From Fulvivirga sp. (GTDB lineage Bacteria; Bacteroidota; Bacteroidia; Cytophagales; Cyclobacteriaceae), in contig JANQLQ010000054.1 in assembly GCA_028280565.1 (NCBI GenBank), positions 1 through 61,246 on the forward strand: 61,246 nucleotides of DNA, given 5' to 3'. Every line of letters starts with the position of its first letter. The first letter of the stretch is position 1. The position numbers and the translations under genes are program-made. Shown here in pieces: positions 31,357 through 38,034 of this stretch. The notes under the pieces were generated by a model, which was not told where the DNA came from, did not search any database, and saw nothing but the letters and a program-made list of their open reading frames with translations.

Positions 31357-33087
31357 TCAAATCAAAGATTTCTCCGCCCACTCCAATCCATTAGGAAGAT
31401 CCAAGGAGTTAAACTCAAGGTGAATCACACGCCTGTTTTTTTTATTCGTAGTTTTTGAAGAGGCATGAAGGATAAGTGGTTTCATGAGCTGTATTCCACC
31501 TGCATTTACTTCGCAAACCGTGGGGATGCTACTCCCGGTAATGAGCTTGATCTCATCATCATTAAGTTTCTTTTTGTGTGATCCGGGCAAAATCTGCAAA
31601 GCTCCATTTTCATCGGTCGTATCATCTAGATGCACCCTTACTGTTACCGTATTGAAAAGGATACTTCCTGGAGGACGAACCCCATAAAATGTCCCTTTTT
31701 TAGTCCAGCCGTTAAAACCATCCACCTCGCCCCGTTCTTTGACATTGATGGTGGTGTCCTGGTGCCAGGTCACATACCAATTTGACTGGGCAGGTTTATC
31801 GAAGAATATCGCTTTGGTAAGAAACAGGTTTTCGTCGATATGCGAGAGAATAGTTTTTAGGTTCTTGTTCAGCAGGAACACTTTCAAACTAGGTACTTCG
31901 TTGAGCAAGTTTCTGATCGCATAGACTGGACCATTATCGTTTGGATGTTCAGATCGGTAGTGATGGAGTATAGAACCCATCTTCCCGATTTCTTTTTTTG
32001 TATATACATAATTCGTGATAATGGATCCTTTTGCCTCCAATCGTCTATCAAAATTCCGGATCCGGCTTTCATTCAGCTCTGTTTGATAAAGATCGATGGC
32101 ATGGGTCAGCCTTTCTTTGATCCTTGACCTTAGCCGGGAAGGCGAGATCACTTTGATGCTATCACCAAATCCCAAGATCTCCCTTTCCAGTTCAAAATTG
32201 GGCTGCACATAAATTGATATAATTATCCCTTGGTCATTCTTCTCTACCAGCTGCTGACTGTGATGGATCGGCTTGGTCAATACGTAAGGAGCATTGGAAT
32301 GATTAATGAATAGTTTCACCACCTGTGGCACTTCTCCCACATTAACACTTACGCCCACCACATCTTTAAAAAAATGAAGGATCTCGTTTTCGTCAAATTC
32401 GGTCACGACTTGGGAGGATTCGCATAATACTTCAATCCTGTCAAGTGCCAACAGCATGTAAGGCTCGGAGGGTCTTTTCTTACCAAGCACGAACCACCTG
32501 TTTCTAAACTCTTTCAATAAGGCAGGGTGAAAAACAAATGTGTTGGATGCCCTGGCTTTAAAAGACTGATAGGTTATTTCGATACACTTTTTAGTGATTA
32601 TGGCTTGGTAGATCGGGTCGATAAATTCCAACCCTTTTAAATATTCATTTTTCTCAAGATCAATAACCGGTCGTTCCTTGGTTTTCGAAACGTGAACCTT
32701 ATCTTCCAGTTTTTGTACCATCCCGCTCAGCTCCTGGAAGTGAGTAAACCCTTTGAATTGCTTGAGGATATCCACCACCTCTGAGAGCTTGCCCAAGTCC
32801 TGGTCCGTCAAAGGAATATTGGTGATGGAATACCCTGGGTCCTCATAGGTATAATATTTCTTATCTACCACAATGATGGGAGCGTTATACCCCAGCTTTT
32901 CACTTCTCATCATTTGGAGGTCCATTTGTACTGTCCGTTTACTTACTCCTTTATCAATGCCTTCGTATTCATAAAGCGCTTCAGAACAGGCCTCGATCAA
33001 ATCTTCCAACGTCCACTGGCGATACCTGTTCCTAAGACAGTTATCAAGAGTTTTATATCGGATAAGTGCGTTTCTATTGACCGGCAT
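31357..33087 (-). CDS. WYL-domain transcriptional regulator fused to a PhyH-type 2OG/Fe(II) dioxygenase
   Basis: 576 residues. Residues ~1-100 form an HTH of the WYL-regulator type (LDNCLRNRYRQWTLEDLIEA; KRTVQMDLQMM). Residues ~150-340 hold the WYL ligand-binding domain and its C-terminal extension (FRNRWFVLGKK is the WYL strand). Residues ~355-576 are a phytanoyl-CoA-dioxygenase-like domain with an intact iron site, H442 and D444 (WHQD) and H541 (LHAS), with R552/R553 for 2-oxoglutarate, plus the typical ENGALQILPGSHKKK. WYL domains in PafBC and DriD respond to nucleic acid. The gene is divergent from the tRNA array, and an inverted repeat lies 39 bp before its start, so it likely regulates itself and the array. 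The enzymatic substrate is unknown. Confidence 0.85.
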   Translation of the reverse strand: MPVNRNALIRYKTLDNCLRNRYRQWTLEDLIEACSEALYEYEGIDKGVSKRTVQMDLQMMRSEKLGYNAPIIVVDKKYYTYEDPGYSITNIPLTDQDLGKLSEVVDILKQFKGFTHFQELSGMVQKLEDKVHVSKTKERPVIDLEKNEYLKGLEFIDPIYQAIITKKCIEITYQSFKARASNTFVFHPALLKEFRNRWFVLGKKRPSEPYMLLALDRIEVLCESSQVVTEFDENEILHFFKDVVGVSVNVGEVPQVVKLFINHSNAPYVLTKPIHHSQQLVEKNDQGIIISIYVQPNFELEREILGFGDSIKVISPSRLRSRIKERLTHAIDLYQTELNESRIRNFDRRLEAKGSIITNYVYTKKEIGKMGSILHHYRSEHPNDNGPVYAIRNLLNEVPSLKVFLLNKNLKTILSHIDENLFLTKAIFFDKPAQSNWYVTWHQDTTINVKERGEVDGFNGWTKKGTFYGVRPPGSILFNTVTVRVHLDDTTDENGALQILPGSHKKKLNDDEIKLITGSSIPTVCEVNAGGIQLMKPLILHASSKTTNKKNRRVIHLEFNSLDLPNGLEWAEKSLI

Positions 33088-33125: not shown

Positions 33126-33165
33126 CTACGCAAAAAGACTGCGTAGTCACCACTCAATTTTGGAT
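33126..33165 (+). promoter_or_regulatory. Inverted-repeat promoter motif, copy a
   Basis: CTACGCA (33126-33132), a 7-nt spacer and TGCGTAG (33140-33146), then exactly 12 nt after TGCGTA comes TTTTGGAT (33158-33165). Copies at 34571 and 36572 have the same spacer length and the same 12-nt distance. CAATTTTG resembles the Bacteroidota -7 box (TAnnTTTG) with one mismatch. The IR would sit near -20 to -40, as for an activator site. It points toward the tRNA array but also lies 39 bp before the WYL-PhyH start. Confidence 0.7.
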
Positions 33166-33245: not shown

Positions 33246-33321
33246 GGGGATGCGCCAACGTTGGAGCGTTGGGCTAAGCTGTAAACCTGGTGCCTGGTAT
33301 GTTTGACTCGTATCATCCCCA
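33246..33321 (+). tRNA. tRNA-Tyr(GUA)-like, short variable loop
   Basis: Acceptor GGGGATG (33246-33252) pairs perfectly with CATCCCC (33314-33320). The D-arm is CCAACG/CGTTGG around TTGGAG, unusually 6 bp. The anticodon loop is CTGTAAA (anticodon GUA) on a CTAAG/CCTGG stem with one A-C mismatch. The T-arm is GTATG/CGTAT with loop TTTGACT. Bacterial tRNA-Tyr normally has a long variable arm; here only ~6 nt lie there. No encoded CCA follows. It may be a tRNA mimic rather than a translational tRNA. Confidence 0.6.
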
Positions 33322-33327
33322 TATTAA

Positions 33328-33537
33328 CTCCTTCTAGCATAAAAGGAAGTGCTGCGGTAAAAGCCTTGAACGCAACCGTGTATTGCCTGGATGAGGTCGT
33401 ATGGAATACGCTTTTATACGAATAGAATTTGCAGAAGCACCGAAAGACCACTCGGAGAAGTTGAGTAGGGAAGCGCATTTATAGCCAGGCTAATCCCTTA
33501 CCAGGGAAGTCCCAGTTCGAATCTGGGGAAGGAGGCA
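33328..33537 (+). ncRNA. tRNA-like RNA interrupted by a ~130-150 nt insertion
   Basis: CTCCTTC (33328-33334) pairs perfectly with GAAGGAG (33528-33534). The 5' part continues with T8-A9 and a D-arm (GCAT, loop with GG, GTGC; 33337-33352). The 3' part has a classic T-arm, CCCAG TTCGAAT CTGGG (33511-33527). GCCTGG (33385-33390) can pair with CCAGGC (33485-33490) in place of an anticodon stem, enclosing 94 nt. No group I intron core was recognised. It might be an intron-bearing tRNA, a tmRNA-like molecule or a purpose-built tRNA mimic. Confidence 0.5.
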
Positions 33538-33721
33538 ATAGAAAAACAAAATAATATTTGGTTTTTAAGATTTATTATTCGATACTTGTGTCGCTAAAAA
33601 AGAAAGAGAAATGAAAGGATTAATACAAAATCAGCATTGCGAAAAGCTACAAAAAAATAGCTTTTTAGGCTTAAATCATAAATTATGGTCTGATTAACGT
33701 TTATTAATTTAATTATAGATT
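33538..33721. other. AT-rich spacer in the RNA array
   Basis: No gene and no tRNA-like element is seen; it leads into the terminator at 33722. It may be the trailer of the first RNA segment. Confidence 0.4.
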
Positions 33722-33839: not shown

Positions 33840-33927
33840 TATTGGTCCAGTTATACTTTATTCAACGGGTAGAGCTACATGAGGAAGGACTTGAAACTAC
33901 GGAGGTAACACCTCCGCTGGTGATATG
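33840..33927 (+). ncRNA. Degenerate tRNA-like segment
   Basis: The text TTCAACGGGTAGAGC resembles a tRNA D-arm and is followed by a hairpin CGGAGGT AAC ACCTCCG (33900-33916), where a T-arm might stand but without a TTC loop. Acceptor strands were not found. It ends just before a terminator. I take it as a decayed tRNA or an unrelated structured RNA. Confidence 0.3.
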
Positions 33928-33957
33928 CCCCTTCCTTCCAAAAGGTTGGGGTTTTTT
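33928..33957 (+). terminator. Intrinsic terminator within the array
   Basis: CCCC (33928-33931), TT, CCTT, loop CCAA, AAGG, TT, GGGG (33948-33951), then six T. The stem has a symmetric TT/TT internal loop. It separates the segment above from the tRNA-Gln/Ile/Asn/Lys cluster, which therefore needs its own promoter at about 33958-33991. Confidence 0.8.
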
Positions 33958-33991
33958 GTTGAAATCAAGGTTTAACTACTTCTAATATCAA

Positions 33992-34062
33992 AGCCGATTA
34001 GTTCACTGGTAGAACATTGGGATTTGGCCCCAAAGGAGCAGGTTCGATTCCTGCATCGGCTT
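33992..34062 (+). tRNA. tRNA-Gln(UUG)-like
   Basis: A full cloverleaf: acceptor AGCCGAT/ATCGGCT, D-arm GTTC/GAAC, anticodon stem TTGGG/CCCAA with loop ATTTGGC (UUG), T-arm GCAGG TTCGATT CCTGC. The variable loop has only 4 nt (AGGA), the first base is A and there is no encoded CCA. Only 6 nt separate it from the next unit. Confidence 0.75.
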
Positions 34063-34068
34063 CTTCCA

Positions 34069-34141
34069 TGGTCTGTAGCTCAACGGTTAGAGTAGCACTC
34101 TTATAAGGTGCAGGTTCCCGGTTCAAGCCCGGGCAGACCAA
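34069..34141 (+). tRNA. tRNA-Ile(UAU)-like
   Basis: Acceptor TGGTCTG/CAGACCA, D-arm GCTC with GG in the loop, anticodon stem GCACT/GGTGC with loop CTTATAA (anticodon UAU), variable AGGTT, T-arm CCCGG TTCAAGC CCGGG. Bacteria usually read AUA with a lysidine-modified CAU tRNA, so UAU is unusual. There is no encoded CCA. Confidence 0.75.
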
Positions 34142-34313
34142 CAAAGCAGTCAAAGGAGGGGTAATTCAGATGCCTTCTTAAAGTCCGAAGAGTGGTTAAA
34201 GGCCACAAGCAGGATTCTGAATGTTCTGTGACGTTTGAAAAAGCTTCGGAAAGTGGTGACTGGCCACTTGGATAGTAAGGATCGAATAGATTCGAATAGA
34301 AAAGTGGTCAATG
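34142..34313 (+). ncRNA. Decayed tRNA-like remnants between Ile and Asn units
   Basis: CTTC TTAAAGTCC GAAG looks like an anticodon arm, and GTGG TTAAAGG CCAC and AAGTGG TGACTGG CCACTT look like long variable arms. CAGGA/TTCTG and an ATTCGAATAG stretch recall T-arms. Acceptor stems cannot be closed. One or two degenerate class II (Leu/Ser-type) tRNAs are a reasonable reading. Confidence 0.35.
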
Positions 34314-34386
34314 GGTGATGTAGCTCAATAGGTAGAGCAGCTCTTTGTTAAAGAGAAGGTTGCTGGTTCAAGTCCAGCCGTCACCG
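34314..34386 (+). tRNA. tRNA-Asn(GUU)
   Basis: Acceptor GGTGATG/CGTCACC, D-arm GCTC/GAGC, anticodon loop TTGTTAA (GUU) on GCTCT/AGAGA with one G-A mismatch at the base, variable AGGTT, T-arm GCTGG TTCAAGT CCAGC, discriminator G. There is no encoded CCA. The cloverleaf is otherwise normal. Confidence 0.85.
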
Positions 34387-34390
34387 CTAA

Positions 34391-34461
34391 TGGTGAGTTT
34401 GGTCTATCCTAGTGTGCAGGTTTGCGCAGCTTGTGACTAGGGTTCGATACTTAGCTCGCTT
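34391..34461 (+). ncRNA. Degenerate tRNA-like unit between Asn and Lys
   Basis: GGTGAG (34392-34397) can pair with CTCGCT (34455-34460) using two wobbles. The T-arm is CTAGG/CTTAG with an 8-nt loop GTTCGATA, one base too long. TGTGC/GCGCA could form an anticodon stem with a 6-nt loop. No proper D-arm is found. Probably a non-translational tRNA relic or mimic. Confidence 0.45.
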
Positions 34462-34469
34462 AAAAAAGA

Positions 34470-34542
34470 GTGCCTGTAGCTCAACAGGTAGAGCTCCGAA
34501 CTTTTAATTCGGAGGTTGGAAGTTCGATCCTTCCCAGGCACA
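34470..34542 (+). tRNA. tRNA-Lys(UUU)
   Basis: Acceptor GTGCCTG/CAGGCAC (perfect), D-arm GCTC/GAGC, anticodon stem CCGAA/TTCGG with loop CTTTTAA (UUU), variable AGGTT, T-arm GGAAG TTCGATC CTTCC, discriminator A. There is no encoded CCA. It is the cleanest tRNA of the array. tRNA-Lys(UUU) is the known target of the anticodon nuclease PrrC. Confidence 0.88.
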
Positions 34543-34570
34543 CAGGACATTTTTTGAAGAAAATATTTAT

Positions 34571-34610
34571 TGCGCAGAAACACTGCGTACTTAGGTAGGA
34601 ACTTTGAAAT
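34571..34610 (+). promoter_or_regulatory. Inverted-repeat promoter motif, copy b
   Basis: TGCGCA (34571-34576), 7-nt spacer GAAACAC, TGCGTA (34584-34589), then exactly 12 nt to CTTTGAAAT (34602-34610). GAACTTTG fits the -7 consensus with one mismatch. It would start an RNA near 34613 covering the permuted tRNA units and possibly the slipin gene. Confidence 0.7.
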
Positions 34611-34649
34611 AGGGTTGAGTTAAAGTGACTCGATCGGGTTGTTAGCTGC

Positions 34650-34671
34650 CCCCCCGACAACTGTCGGGGGG
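34650..34671 (+). terminator. Attenuator-like GC hairpin in the second RNA leader
   Basis: CCCCCCGACA (34650-34659) pairs with TGTCGGGGGG (34662-34671), followed by GTTTGAT. It is preceded by GCTGCC and lies ~45 nt after promoter motif b, mirroring the hairpin at 33203 after motif a. The short U run makes full termination uncertain. Confidence 0.55.
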
Positions 34672-34674
34672 TTT

Positions 34675-34760
34675 GATAACCGGCAAGATAGTGGCGATTG
34701 TGCCTACCCTGGACATGGAGGGATATAGGTTTGAATCCCGCTTCCAAGGTACACAGCGCT
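34675..34760 (+). ncRNA. Possible degenerate tRNA-like element
   Basis: GGTTTGAATCCCG (34728-34740) resembles a T-arm half, but its 5' stem strand no longer matches; GGGAT/ATCCC (34720-34738) pairs instead with a 10-nt loop. CCCT/AGGG upstream could be a long variable arm. No acceptor partner was found. Low confidence. Confidence 0.25.
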
Positions 34761-34929
34761 ATTTAAATAATATTGAAATGCTTTTTTGAAGCAGAACTAA
34801 AGATCTTCCCCTAAAGGGAGGCACAGAAAAAAACGGGTGGCAGCAAGACCTGGCGAGAGTTTCTGTATAGCTCCGTAGTGCTCACTAAGCTGTTGAGTAT
34901 GCTGCTTATGTCATGCGTTGTTTTTCCCA

Positions 34930-35009
34930 CTTGTAGGACGCGGGTTCGAATCCCGTCTTTATCTCCCGGAAGGGCTGGATAATGTAGCTCAGTTGGCTAG
35001 AGCATCAAG
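34930..35009 (+). ncRNA. Circularly permuted tRNA-like unit 1
   Basis: The 3' half comes first: CTTGT (34930-34934), variable AGGAC, T-arm GCGGG TTCGAAT CCCGT (34940-34956), acceptor strand CTTTATC (34957-34963). After a 14-nt linker with a CCC-GGAA-GGG hairpin comes the 5' half: acceptor GATAATG (34978-34984), T8-A9, D-arm GCTC/GAGC with GG loop (34987-35003) and TCAAG (35005-35009). Acceptor strands pair 6/7 and anticodon-stem strands 4/5, with U-U mismatches. No normally ordered partner exists. The molecule would be open at the anticodon loop. Confidence 0.65.
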
Positions 35010-35012
35010 TAC

Positions 35013-35096
35013 CCTGTAGGATGTGGGTTCGACTCCCACCTCGCCGGACGGCGTGTAGTTCAATGGCAGAACGACAGGAATGGACTGCAAATCCAT
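35013..35096 (+). ncRNA. Circularly permuted tRNA-like unit 2
   Basis: The 3' half: CCTGT (35013-35017), variable AGGAT, T-arm GTGGG TTCGACT CCCAC (35023-35039), acceptor CTCGCCG (35040-35046). After 2 nt (GA) the 5' half: acceptor CGGCGTG (35049-35055), T8-A9, D-arm GTTC/GAAC (35058-35072), then ACAGG (35074-35078). Acceptor pairing is 6/7, with a U-U mismatch at the same place as in unit 1; ACAGG/CCTGT pairs 5/5. It is followed by a complete tRNA-Cys-like anticodon arm, ATGGA CTGCAAA TCCAT (35080-35096). Only 3 nt separate it from unit 1. Confidence 0.68.
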
Positions 35097-35417
35097 TTTG
35101 ATGAAGTCGTCAGCTTCTAAAATATGACACATTCTGAAAGCAGGATGAAATTGGCTCGCTGCATTCTTTCTCGGGAGAGTGGAGCAGTCTTGAAAGTGTT
35201 TTGCAATAGTGAGGATACCGCTTGGAGAGGCTCCGTTGCTTTGCTTAAAAATGACTCTTTAGTACTCATGACCAGGTTCTGATCATGATGAAATGAAATC
35301 GCTTTTAAGGAAACTGATCGATTCAATCCAGGCTGAATCGCTATTCCACATTGGAAAGATGGCTGACTTCAGACTGTTTTCTTTTAATGAATTTTTAACC
35401 CTATAAATATAAATGTG
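35097..35417. other. Region between the permuted RNA units and the slipin gene
   Basis: No gene is supported. GTCGT (35106-35110) could pair with ACGAC (35071-35075) as an alternative to the unit 2 fold. Small hairpins such as GATTCA/TGAATC occur near 35320-35340. No clear terminator is seen, so the slipin gene may be read through from promoter motif b; the last 20 bp are AT-rich. Confidence 0.4.
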
Positions 35418-36518
35418 ATGAAAAGGATCAGGGTAAATGCTGGTAAAATCGGTTTAGTGTTTAAAAAGGGTGATTACAAACGAGTGATCACAACAGGAAC
35501 ACACTGGCTAACTCCTTTTAAAAAGGTTGCTATCTACGATTTAGCCAAGCCGTTCTATCCTTCAATCGAACTTAACGTGTTGTTGAGGGATGAAGAGTTA
35601 GCAAAACATCTCACCATTGTTGAGGTCAGCGATAACGAACTTGCCATTCAATACGAGAATAGTAACTTCAAAGCTGTCTTGACACCGGGTAGATATGCTT
35701 TCTGGAAAGGACTGGTAGACTACACATTCGTAAAGGCCGACCTAAGTAAAGTTGAGATCACAGGAGCGATCGATCTCCTAGCCATAAAAAGAAAAGAGTT
35801 GGTACCTTATGTACGTGTTTGCAAGGTGGACTCCTTCCAAAATGGTGTTTTATTCGTGGATAATAAAGTCGAGAAGATCTTAGGTCCGGGCGAATACTAC
35901 TTCTGGAAGAATGCACAAGACGTGACCGTATCTAAGGTTGACTTAAGGCAACAGCAAATGGAAGTCTCTGGCCAGGAGATCTTGACCAAAGATAAAGCTG
36001 CTTTGAGAATAAGTTTCTATACCCAATACAAAGTGGTAGATGTAACCAAGGCAGTCATCGACAACAAAGATTACGAAAAGCAATTGTACATATTAATGCA
36101 GTTCGCTTTGCGTGAATACATAGGTACTTTGACATTGGACGAATTGTTGGAAAACAAGGAGGCCATAACCAAATACGTGATGGACACTTTGAAAGATAAA
36201 GCTGCCGCGCTGGGTGTTGAGGTCAAGAGCTGCGGTGTAAGGGACATCATCTTGCCTGGTGACATGAAAGAGATCATGAACCAGGTATTGATCGCCCAAA
36301 AGCAAGCCCAGGCTAATGTAATTGCCAGGAGGGAAGAAACCGCTTCTACCCGAAGCTTGCTTAATACGGCTAAGTTGATGGAGGAAAACGACATGCTATT
36401 CAAATTGAAAGAGATGGAATATGTCGAAAAAATTGCCGAGAAAATAGGTGAGATCACTGTTGCAGGTAATGGACAGATCATAGACCAATTAAAAGGCATT
36501 TTTACTCCAGGTAAGTAA
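35418..36518 (+). CDS. Slipin / SPFH (Band 7) family protein
   Basis: I use the ATG at 35418 (366 residues); an in-frame GTG is one codon upstream. Three related N-terminal beta segments end in GTHWL, GRYAFWKG and GEYYFWKN (about residues 20-30, 92-100 and 157-165). The SPFH core follows (about 180-290), then a coiled-coil tail (about 290-350, IAQKQAQANVIARREETAST). There is no obvious N-terminal membrane anchor, unlike classical slipins. SPFH proteins build oligomeric scaffolds on membranes. Placement between the tRNA-like RNAs and rtcB suggests a scaffold or localisation role in RNA repair, which is inference. Confidence 0.85.
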   Translation: MKRIRVNAGKIGLVFKKGDYKRVITTGTHWLTPFKKVAIYDLAKPFYPSIELNVLLRDEELAKHLTIVEVSDNELAIQYENSNFKAVLTPGRYAFWKGLVDYTFVKADLSKVEITGAIDLLAIKRKELVPYVRVCKVDSFQNGVLFVDNKVEKILGPGEYYFWKNAQDVTVSKVDLRQQQMEVSGQEILTKDKAALRISFYTQYKVVDVTKAVIDNKDYEKQLYILMQFALREYIGTLTLDELLENKEAITKYVMDTLKDKAAALGVEVKSCGVRDIILPGDMKEIMNQVLIAQKQAQANVIARREETASTRSLLNTAKLMEENDMLFKLKEMEYVEKIAEKIGEITVAGNGQIIDQLKGIFTPGK

Positions 36519-36612: not shown

Positions 36613-38034
36613 ATGGAAAACGAAAAAACAAATATCACAGGGAAGCATATACTGGAGATTGGGTACCCAGCAGGGAAAGTAATAGGCGTAGCCATAGAAG
36701 TGGCCAAGTCGGGTCTGGCTGGAAATAGCCCAGAAGGAATAATTAAAGCCCTGGCTGATGTTCTTACCCATCCGGAGCAATATCTCAATGACCCGACGCT
36801 GGCACCTATAGCCACCGAGTTATTGAGCCCTAAAGATGACGTCATGTCCTTAAGAGATACCCCGGACCTGTACAAAGTCTATGGTGCAGAAGGTATTGAG
36901 CAAGGGGCACTGAACCAGGTTGAAACGGCGATGAGGTTACCCATTGCCAAGGCCGGAGCATTGATGCCCGATGCGCACCAAGGGTATGGACTCCCTATTG
37001 GAGGAGTCCTGGCTACGGAGAATGCTGTTATCCCTTATGGCGTGGGCGTAGATATCGGGTGCAGGATGTGTATGACGATCTATGACATCCCGGAATCCAT
37101 CCTTGCGGATAGGAAAGAGGATCTCAAAAAGATGCTGATGATGAATACCAAGTTTGGCAAGGCTACTTTCAAAAAACCCAAAGACCACGAGGTGTTGGAA
37201 CATCATCTTTTTAACGAGATCAAGGTAGTAGGAGAGCTGAAAGACCGGGCAGCGGCTCAAATTGGTAGCTCAGGAGGTGGTAATCACTTTGTTGAATTTG
37301 GCGTGACCGAAATTGAGGATGAACATAACGAGTTCAATTTACCCGTAGGTAGATACCTTGCGCTACTTTCTCATTCGGGGTCAAGGGGGTTTGGCGCTAA
37401 CATCGCAAAGCATTATACCAAATTGGCTATGGAGCTCTGTAAGCTTCCCCAGGAGGCCCGGCACCTGGCATGGTTAGACCTGGATACGGAGGCTGGGCAA
37501 GAATATTGGCTGGCGATGAACCTGGCCGGTGAATACGCCTCCGCCTGCCATCACCAGATCCACGAGCGGATGGCCGTAGGTTTAAGAGCCACTCCTGTCA
37601 CCATGATTGAAAACCATCACAACTTCGCGTGGAAGGAAAAAGACAAAGATGGAAATGAGATCATCGTACATAGAAAGGGTGCTACACCTGCTGGTAAAGG
37701 AGTGTTGGGCATCATTCCTGGGTCTATGACCGCCCCCGGCTATATTGTAAGAGGTAAAGGAGAGGAATCTTCGATCAACTCAGCTTCTCACGGTGCCGGC
37801 CGGGCAATGTCCAGGACCCAGGCGAAAAACAAGTTGGATAAAACCAGTGTCCTGGAGCATATTCATTCGGCAGGTGTGGAAGTGATCGGTTCCGGGTTGG
37901 ATGAAGCGCCAATGGCTTATAAGGACATTAAACAGGTGATGGAATTCCAAAAGGACCTGGTGGAGATCGTAGGCTCTTTTCAGCCCAGGATAGTAAGGAT
38001 GTGTGGAGATGAGAAGTTTCAGGAGGTGGATTGA
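36613..38034 (+). CDS. rtcB: RtcB-family tRNA/RNA 3'-phosphate ligase
   Basis: 473 residues with all RtcB active-site features: DAHQGYGLPIGG (about 120-131), D147 and C150 in GVGVDIGC (metal), N224/H225/E228 in GGGNHFVEFG, H254 in HSGSRG, H335/H336 in NHHNFAW, and H393 in SASHGAGRAMSR, the guanylylated histidine region. It is ~65 residues longer than E. coli RtcB, mainly through an N-terminal segment (NITGKHILEIGYPAGK). RtcB joins 2',3'-cyclic-phosphate or 3'-phosphate ends to 5'-OH ends, the ends left by anticodon nucleases. No archease or RtcA gene lies nearby. Together with the tRNA array this indicates an RNA-repair locus. Confidence 0.95.
   Translation: MENEKTNITGKHILEIGYPAGKVIGVAIEVAKSGLAGNSPEGIIKALADVLTHPEQYLNDPTLAPIATELLSPKDDVMSLRDTPDLYKVYGAEGIEQGALNQVETAMRLPIAKAGALMPDAHQGYGLPIGGVLATENAVIPYGVGVDIGCRMCMTIYDIPESILADRKEDLKKMLMMNTKFGKATFKKPKDHEVLEHHLFNEIKVVGELKDRAAAQIGSSGGGNHFVEFGVTEIEDEHNEFNLPVGRYLALLSHSGSRGFGANIAKHYTKLAMELCKLPQEARHLAWLDLDTEAGQEYWLAMNLAGEYASACHHQIHERMAVGLRATPVTMIENHHNFAWKEKDKDGNEIIVHRKGATPAGKGVLGIIPGSMTAPGYIVRGKGEESSINSASHGAGRAMSRTQAKNKLDKTSVLEHIHSAGVEVIGSGLDEAPMAYKDIKQVMEFQKDLVEIVGSFQPRIVRMCGDEKFQEVD

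What the first reader, a model, noticed from the sequence alone, without database searches (positions are those of the whole stretch)
34930..35096. Two adjacent circularly permuted tRNA-like genes
In each unit the T-arm half precedes the D-arm half. Acceptor strands pair 6/7 in both, with a U-U mismatch at the same position; the anticodon-stem strands pair 4/5 and 5/5 at correct spacing (T8-A9, 5-nt variable loop, G18G19). Neither half has a normally ordered partner. Known permuted tRNAs come from red algae, other picoeukaryotes and an archaeon; I know of none in bacteria. The RNA would be joined at the acceptor and open in the anticodon loop, so it is a tRNA pre-nicked exactly where RtcB works.
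Basis: partly seen in the sequence, partly recalled or inferred. Interest (0 to 1): 0.92.

Follow-up and report, generated by a model that had tools for sequence, protein, structure and literature searches.

The report
Twin inside-out tRNA mimics beside RtcB
Next to an RNA-repair gene, many Bacteroidota bacteria carry a long non-coding RNA holding tRNA look-alikes, usually two, whose halves are in swapped order, a wiring shared with the known bacterial Y RNAs; this suggests an RNA part of a tRNA-damage response.

Summary
At 34930-35009 and 35013-35078 the T half precedes the D half, with the stated pairings. The same kind of element lies upstream of slipin (Band-7) genes across Bacteroidota, in about half of the loci with rtcB next. 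A 73-unit alignment shows compensatory change in all four helices (covariation 0.695, shuffled 0.238, 0/500). In 40 adjacent unit pairs, permuted acceptors pair 6.2/7 and normal-order ones 3.55/7, chance 3.4. A covariance model finds units in 27 of 29 held-out slipin loci.

These are not shown to be tRNA genes, and the permuted order has a bacterial precedent: Rfam YrlA (Y RNA) has the same topology and matches the window below its threshold (38.5 bits, E 3e-7). The conserved RNA runs on at both ends, so nothing shows a pre-nicked tRNA. Over half of the last units are followed by a canonical anticodon arm, most often Lys or Asn.

Best reading: a Y-RNA-like double tRNA mimic inside a ~585-nt RNA ahead of slipin-rtcB, in a genome where no Ro60 was found; it probably acts as scaffold or decoy. 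I recall that a Band-7-linked 'novel tRNA-like molecule' was reported in 2016 (paper not held).

The parts
34800..35385 (+). conserved ~585-nt RNA element between the tRNA array and slipin (ends approximate)
   Evidence: alignment and consensus fold of 14 loci; 104 predicted pairs, 76 with at least one two-sided change
34930..35009 (+). permuted tRNA-like unit 1 (closed at the anticodon-stem position)
   Evidence: R1 65.9 bits, E 1.4e-15 (both window units are among the 73 used to build R1)
34957..34984 (+). unit 1 acceptor hairpin: strands 34957-34963 and 34978-34984, 14-nt cap
   Evidence: 6/7 pairs; helix covaries in relatives
35013..35078 (+). permuted tRNA-like unit 2
   Evidence: R1 64.7 bits, E 2.8e-15
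35002..35107 (+). match to the whole length of the Rfam YrlA (Y RNA-like) model, below its gathering score; its outer 6-bp stem would pair 35003-35008 with 35098-35103, an alternative to closing unit 1
   Evidence: 38.5 bits, E 3.1e-7, gathering 69; 6/6 pairs; conservation of this outer stem not tested
35080..35096 (+). anticodon-arm-like hairpin, 5 bp and 7-nt loop CTGCAAA (GCA, Cys type), starting 6 nt after the canonical position
   Evidence: arms with U33 and R37 follow 53 of 95 last units; best other match in the genome has 2 mismatches
35136..35381 (+). 3' domain of the RNA, closed by GAAAGCAG (35136-35143) and CTGTTTTC (35374-35381)
   Evidence: consensus fold
34571..34589 (+). operator-like repeat TNCGCA-N7-TGCGCA upstream of the RNA (1 mismatch)
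   Evidence: motif in 60 of 102 loci, 1 of 102 in reversed sequence
33127..33145 (+). second copy of the operator-like repeat, between the divergent WYL gene and the tRNA array (1 mismatch)
33992..34543 (+). tRNA array: Gln, Ile, Asn, Lys
   Evidence: ARAGORN, Rfam
35415..36518 (+). slipin / Band-7 (SPFH) protein
   Evidence: PF01145, E 3.6e-33
36613..38034 (+). RtcB RNA ligase
   Evidence: PF01139, E 6.4e-83
31357..33087 (-). WYL-domain regulator, divergent (C-terminal PhyH match in the same frame)
   Evidence: PF13280, PF25583, PF05721

Best explanation
The two units are tandem tRNA mimics of the Y RNA (YrlA) kind: T arm, hairpin-capped acceptor stem, U8-A9, D arm, with the chain entering and leaving where a tRNA has its anticodon arm (unit 1) or, in many relatives' last unit, its variable loop. 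They are the centre of a ~585-nt RNA that lies on the same strand just before slipin-rtcB. Shown: order, covariation, conservation, linkage to slipin, to tRNA arrays, and in part of the loci to RtcB and a WYL gene. Inferred: the promoter near 34571 is controlled by the WYL protein; RNA and slipin-rtcB share a transcript; the RNA is made when tRNAs are damaged; it folds as an uncharged tRNA shape that slipin (in place of Ro60) uses as an RNA scaffold, presenting a decoy anticodon loop or docking tRNA-acting enzymes near RtcB. I put the structural class at about 0.8 and the scaffold-or-decoy role at about 0.4.
For: Acceptor pairing far above cross-locus controls; covariation in all four helices, 0/500 shuffles, slid controls 0.10-0.19; 27 of 29 held-out slipin loci, many of them kin of training loci, have an R1 hit of at least 49.5 bits upstream. 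YrlA has the same topology and matches 14 of 16 relatives' loci at E <= 0.05, all below its gathering score. R1, built only from slipin-linked units, hits at 35 bits or more within about 1.4 kb of the Ro60/TROVE gene in 6 of 8 TROVE loci. Ro60 (PF05731) was not found in the own genome and was found in 2 of 14 genomes with the slipin locus. Context in 66 loci with about 5 kb upstream: a tRNA upstream in 51, RtcB downstream in 34, a divergent WYL homologue in 22. Arm with U33 and R37 after 53 of 95 last units, against 3.7% at random positions with the same scan; Lys TTT 14, Asn GTT 11.
Against: No expression, binding or processing data. YrlA scores stay below Rfam's cut-off. RtcB was found downstream in only 34 of 66 loci; that the two loci without units (L036, L041) also lack it is therefore weak. 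R1 gives some match in 58 of 58 genomes at E <= 0.01, and the long hits I looked at join T of one tRNA with D of the next in ordinary arrays, so weak or long hits mean little. Rfam's tRNA model reaches its threshold over the element in normal order in 9 of 12 relatives' loci (29.4-45.1 bits). 53 of 96 last units also pair at least 4/5 with their T-side strand, so the variable-loop break is not the only option. In Burkholderia and Photobacterium the slipin-linked tRNA-likes read in normal order. In the window the anticodon hairpin is 6 nt off the canonical place. The operator motif was derived from some of the loci it was counted in.
Confidence: 0.7

Rival explanations
1. True permuted tRNA genes: RtcB joins ends cut in the anticodon or variable loop, making a circle that RNase P and a 3' nuclease open into a working tRNA.
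For: Order and cloverleaf pairing; canonical anticodon arms; known permuted tRNA genes have intervening sequences down to 1 nt (PMC3978253, passages); RtcB next door.
Against: No conserved bulge-helix-bulge at the junction; acceptor caps short (median 4 nt in 148 units) with NCCA at the cap start in 6 of 148, weak because 4 of 4 array tRNAs of the window also lack an encoded CCA right after their 3' end; 11 different acceptors among 14 Lys-type units, inconclusive because array tRNA-Lys genes also vary, 12 among 22; units lie inside a larger conserved RNA.
Confidence: 0.1
2. A sensor leader: an anticodon nuclease cuts the exposed anticodon loop in the RNA, which changes expression of slipin-rtcB; RtcB reseals it and switches the response off.
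For: Same-strand position before slipin; the simple scan found one weak terminator-like site between unit 2 and slipin (35223-35235); Lys/Asn-type loops in relatives; RtcB in the window's operon.
Against: No switch or alternative fold was looked for beyond one consensus fold; RtcB was found downstream in only 34 of 66 loci; no data on cutting.
Confidence: 0.2
3. Decaying pieces of normally ordered tRNAs in a tRNA array, permuted only by reading across neighbours.
For: Array neighbours give R1 hits (34028-34099 in the window, 30.3 bits); Rfam tRNA hits over the element in 9 of 12 relatives' loci, 29.8 bits in the window, 45.1 bits in L002.
Against: Normal-order acceptor pairing is at chance, 3.55/7 in 40 adjacent pairs, while permuted pairing is 6.2/7 in the same loci and covaries; in L002 both units have the same acceptor strands, which explains its hit.
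Confidence: 0.02

Closest known systems
Bacterial Y RNA, YrlA (Rfam RF02553)
   Same: T arm, hairpin-capped acceptor, two linker bases, D arm, closed by a stem at the anticodon position; in some bacteria encoded with rtcBA (PMC7790460 and PMC8394870, passages).
   Different: Here often tandem, inside a ~585-nt RNA, linked to slipin, Ro60 not found in this genome, an anticodon arm after many last units, scores below Rfam's threshold.
Band-7-associated 'novel tRNA-like molecule' (Burroughs and Aravind 2016, NAR gkw722; recalled from its abstract, not held)
   Same: As recalled, a tRNA-like RNA linked to SPFH/Band-7 and RNA repair systems; possibly the same element or its relatives.
   Different: Unknown: I could not read whether order, tandem arrangement or anticodon arm were described.
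Circularly permuted tRNA genes (red and green algae, Thermofilum)
   Same: 3' half before 5' half.
   Different: Those mature through a bulge-helix-bulge junction and a circular intermediate into tRNAs (PMC3978253, passages); no conserved junction helix found here.
Anabaena trn operon and TrcR regulon
   Same: A tRNA array, rtcB and a slipin gene held down by one repressor; slipin and rtcB transcripts rise in its deletion, and the repression is relieved under translational stress (PMC10272220, passages).
   Different: Ribbon-helix-helix repressor, not WYL; genes not adjacent; I did not look for this RNA there.

Membership tests
YrlA / bacterial Y RNA | Permuted tRNA-like domain with capped acceptor | tested here: met
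YrlA / bacterial Y RNA | Score above Rfam gathering threshold (69 bits) | tested here: not met
   38.5 bits in window; best 42.5 in 16 relatives' loci
YrlA / bacterial Y RNA | Ro60 (Rsr) partner encoded | tested here: not met
   PF05731 not found in own genome; found in 2 of 14 slipin-locus genomes
YrlA / bacterial Y RNA | Ro60-binding stem made of the 5' and 3' ends | tested here: inconclusive
   in the YrlA alignment the outer 6-pair stem forms (35003-35008 with 35098-35103), the inner 7-pair stem is marked non-standard; the outer stem competes with the strand that closes unit 1; not tested in relatives
Circularly permuted tRNA gene | T half before D half, cloverleaf pairing | tested here: met
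Circularly permuted tRNA gene | Bulge-helix-bulge at the junction | tested here: not met
   best 4-bp offset in 13% of 103 units, shuffled 4%
Circularly permuted tRNA gene | Yields a mature charged tRNA | not testable with these tools
   no RNA data

The most novel reading that the evidence does not exclude
A sacrificial anticodon loop built into the leader RNA of an RNA-ligase operon: the permuted tRNA mimic holds the loop in a tRNA-like pose without being chargeable, toxins cut it as they cut tRNA-Lys or tRNA-Asn, and RtcB reseals it, so that the RNA senses and absorbs tRNA damage, with slipin taking Ro60's place as the protein partner.
Probability: 0.2. Interest if true: 0.92.

Novelty: new variant of a known kind. 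Interest (0 to 1): 0.72.

Why it matters
It shows that the swapped-half tRNA fold known from Ro60-bound Y RNAs is widespread in Bacteroidota at slipin loci, mostly in genomes where no Ro60 was found among those tested (12 of 14), often doubled and tied to tRNA arrays and in about half of the loci to RtcB. It gives a concrete RNA with testable partners in a repair pathway whose bacterial substrates are still poorly known, and the recurrent Lys and Asn anticodon loops suggest what may attack it.

Tried and rejected
Normal-order tRNA (D half 1 with T half 2): rejected, chance pairing; the 52 pairs included 12 lying more than 100 nt apart, so I recounted the 40 adjacent ones. T-side-closed unit 2 as the general rule: 27 of 96 last units pair 5/5 (53 at 4/5 or better), while 62 of 96 have a local 5-bp hairpin, best of nine offsets, 44 at the canonical place. 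Acceptor diversity as proof against working tRNAs: inconclusive. Missing CCA: weak. Conserved bulge-helix-bulge: none. Terminator after unit 2: only a weak site; 4 sites in 33900-35500 against 1.7 expected, one of them the T arm itself. Slipin relatives in the phage collection: no match at E <= 1e-20. Four of nine plasmid-collection hits were fetched as a distribution test. Motif matching for the flanking domains over 102 loci was too loose or too strict to use. Some rows of alignment A2 (L008:3257, L057:1099, L062:4045, perhaps L035:4082) look like neighbours in tRNA arrays rather than true units; they were kept. Of 161 motif units, 121 passed linker of 8 nt or less and at least 3/7 acceptor pairs; A2 took 72 of these plus window unit 1 (linker 14), leaving out 47 later units and the first units of L010 and L028. 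Searches used no pairing filter. Of 103 distinct loci, L034 has only 62 nt upstream and cannot show a unit; it was left out.

Full report
What is in the window. The order T half, acceptor, D half is present twice at the stated coordinates, with the stated pairings. Downstream are a slipin (Band-7) gene and rtcB, upstream a tRNA array (Gln, Ile, Asn, Lys) and, divergent, a WYL-domain gene. The genome is 9.05 Mb in 337 contigs; the closest named slipin relatives listed are Splendidivirga (86%) and Fulvivirga (80%).

Is it more than chance? In the window alone the four helices give about 5e-5 by shuffles, if independent. Slipin orthologues gave 103 distinct loci after removing duplicates. Choosing T arms and D arms by local motif only, 91 of 103 loci have at least one T-then-D unit, 143 units in all; acceptor strands pair 5.96/7 on average against 3.4 when strands come from different loci; 2000 permutations never exceed 3.93 for first units or 4.06 for second units. 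In the 40 adjacent unit pairs, permuted acceptors pair 6.2/7 in each unit, while D half 1 with T half 2, the normal order, pairs 3.55/7 (4 of 40 at 6/7), against 3.40 across loci. In a sequence-only alignment of 73 units, 90.2% of cells pair (shuffled 66.1%), covariation is 0.695 (shuffled 0.238, 0/500; slid structures 0.10-0.19), and 19 of 21 pairs change on both sides; the other two, in the T stem, never vary. The anticodon-position helix is the weakest, 76.7% of cells paired. A covariance model from it (R1) finds units upstream of slipin in 27 of 29 loci not used to build it, lowest 49.5 bits; several of these are kin of training loci. By my reading of its table, 77 of 79 loci have a hit of at least 50 bits there, but most of these were in the training set. 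Exceptions in both: L036 and L041.

Limits of the model. R1 gives some match at E <= 0.01 in 58 of 58 related genomes. The long ones I looked at join the T half of one array tRNA with the D half of the next, as at 34028-34099 in the window (30.3 bits). Rfam's own tRNA model reaches threshold over the element in normal order in 9 of 12 relatives' loci, 29.4 to 45.1 bits; these pair D half 1 with T half 2, or D half 2 with what follows. The pairing statistics above are why I do not follow them.

Anatomy. By the motif scan 57 of 96 loci with units have two or more, some of them array neighbours. Earlier units usually close with their own T-side strand (55 of 65 at 4/5 or better, 41 at 5/5). Among last units 62 of 96 have a local 5-bp hairpin, 44 of them at the canonical anticodon position, while 53 of 96 also pair at least 4/5 with the T-side strand. 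With U33 and a purine at 37 required, 53 of 95 last units qualify against 3.7% at random positions; anticodons are Lys TTT 14, Asn GTT 11, Met-type CAT 4, then others. In the window the arm is Cys-type (GCA), offset by 6 nt, and its best other match in the genome has 2 mismatches. The acceptor cap has a median of 4 nt in 148 units. In 14 related loci the units sit in a larger RNA with a conserved 5' domain and a 3' domain closed by GAAAGCAG/CTGCTTTC-type strands; 76 of 104 predicted pairs have a two-sided change. That fold comes from an automatic alignment with gaps, with some rows misaligned, and is weaker evidence than the unit test.

Context. In 66 loci with about 5 kb upstream, 51 have an ARAGORN tRNA upstream (mean 4.36 upstream, 0.21 downstream), 34 have RtcB downstream and 22 a divergent WYL homologue, by tblastn with the window proteins in the DNA held; some tRNA calls may be the units themselves. 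A repeat TNCGCA-N7-TGCGCA with at most one mismatch occurs upstream in 60 of 102 loci (reversed-sequence control 1 of 102); in the window at 33127 and 34571. I derived the motif from some of these loci. The two loci without units have it 171 and 168 nt before slipin and no detected RtcB, but 32 of 66 loci show no RtcB downstream, so that is weak.

What it is. Rfam YrlA matches the window over its whole model length below its cut-off (38.5 bits, gathering 69), and its printed structure has the same permuted order. In that alignment the outer 6-pair stem forms (35003-35008 with 35098-35103) and the inner 7-pair stem does not; the outer stem would compete with the strand that closes unit 1. YrlA matches 14 of 16 relatives' loci at E <= 0.05, all below the cut-off, not L009 or L010. 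R1 in turn finds units within about 1.4 kb of the Ro60 (TROVE) gene in 6 of 8 TROVE loci (35 bits or more), not in L142 and only weakly in L141 (20.9 bits); YrlA itself matches 4 of these 8 at E <= 0.001. So the module is shared with Ro60-linked Y RNAs. Yet PF05731 was not found in the window's genome and was found in 2 of 14 genomes with the slipin locus. A third context is downstream of a 722-aa protein without a Pfam match in G006, G007 and G013; the G006 and G013 copies resemble NF041916 (RING family) below its cut-off, and in G013 rtcB lies nearby. I did not scan every gene of these loci.

Other phyla. Of four slipin loci outside Bacteroidota (of nine hits), Burkholderia and Photobacterium carry tRNA-likes that read in normal order, Subdoligranulum a permuted-like hairpin, E. 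coli a degenerate one (read by eye). So the permuted arrangement is not the only one at slipin loci.

Mechanism. Shown: structure, conservation, linkage. Inferred: WYL-controlled induction on tRNA damage; a tRNA shape that binds tRNA-acting proteins; slipin as scaffold; anticodon loop as decoy or sensor. Published support by analogy: tRNA fragments activate the Salmonella rsr-yrlBA-rtcBA operon (PMC8394870, passages), and YrlA was suggested as a competitive inhibitor of the nuclease (PMC7790460, passages); in Anabaena one repressor holds down a tRNA array, rtcB and a slipin gene (PMC10272220, passages).

Novelty. Ten searches ('RtcB slipin tRNA', 'permuted tRNA bacteria', 'RtcB tRNA array WYL', 'Y RNA YrlA tRNA bacterial', 'RtcB Band-7 SPFH tRNA-like', 'RtcB SPFH', 'tRNA-like RtcB Y RNA', 'Ro60 Y RNA bacteria permut', 'slipin RNA ligase', 'anticodon nuclease RtcB decoy') listed no paper whose title or shown start of abstract describes this element. 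Three of the lists were cut (20 of 39, 20 of 47, 12 of 90), the library holds open papers only, and I read passages of seven papers. I recall that the abstract of Burroughs and Aravind 2016 mentions a novel tRNA-like molecule with Band-7 proteins; it is not held, so priority is open.

Noticed in passing
window 33321-33542: tRNA-like RNA with D arm, T arm and matching acceptor but roughly 150 nt inserted in the anticodon region (read by eye); similar sequence upstream in L003-L006 and L008. Not called by ARAGORN, and no Rfam family reached its gathering score there.
   Followed up: partly
window 34158-34262: A third conserved array RNA (read by eye), with similar sequence in L007 and L009-L011.
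   Followed up: no
L149 4062-6230 (-), L150 1576-3744 (+), L151 4306-6474 (-): 722-aa protein, no Pfam hit for any of the three, followed by a strong permuted unit (72.4, 61.6, 59.5 bits); L149 and L150 copies resemble NCBIfam NF041916 (RING, MXAN_6230/SCO0854) below its cut-off. Possible third Y-RNA partner besides Ro60 and slipin.
   Followed up: partly
window 31357-33087 (-): WYL regulator and a PhyH (phytanoyl-CoA dioxygenase) domain in one open frame.
   Followed up: no
window 33248-33318: tRNA-Tyr-like sequence with a degraded T arm at the start of the array (read by eye).
   Followed up: no
G024 contig C1 (several places): Runs of regularly spaced R1 hits, which look like tandemly repeated tRNA genes.
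   Followed up: no
L092 8876-8957, L099 8849-8931: Further R1 hits (60.8 and 58.1 bits) about 3.9 kb downstream of the slipin start in two Kordia records.
   Followed up: no
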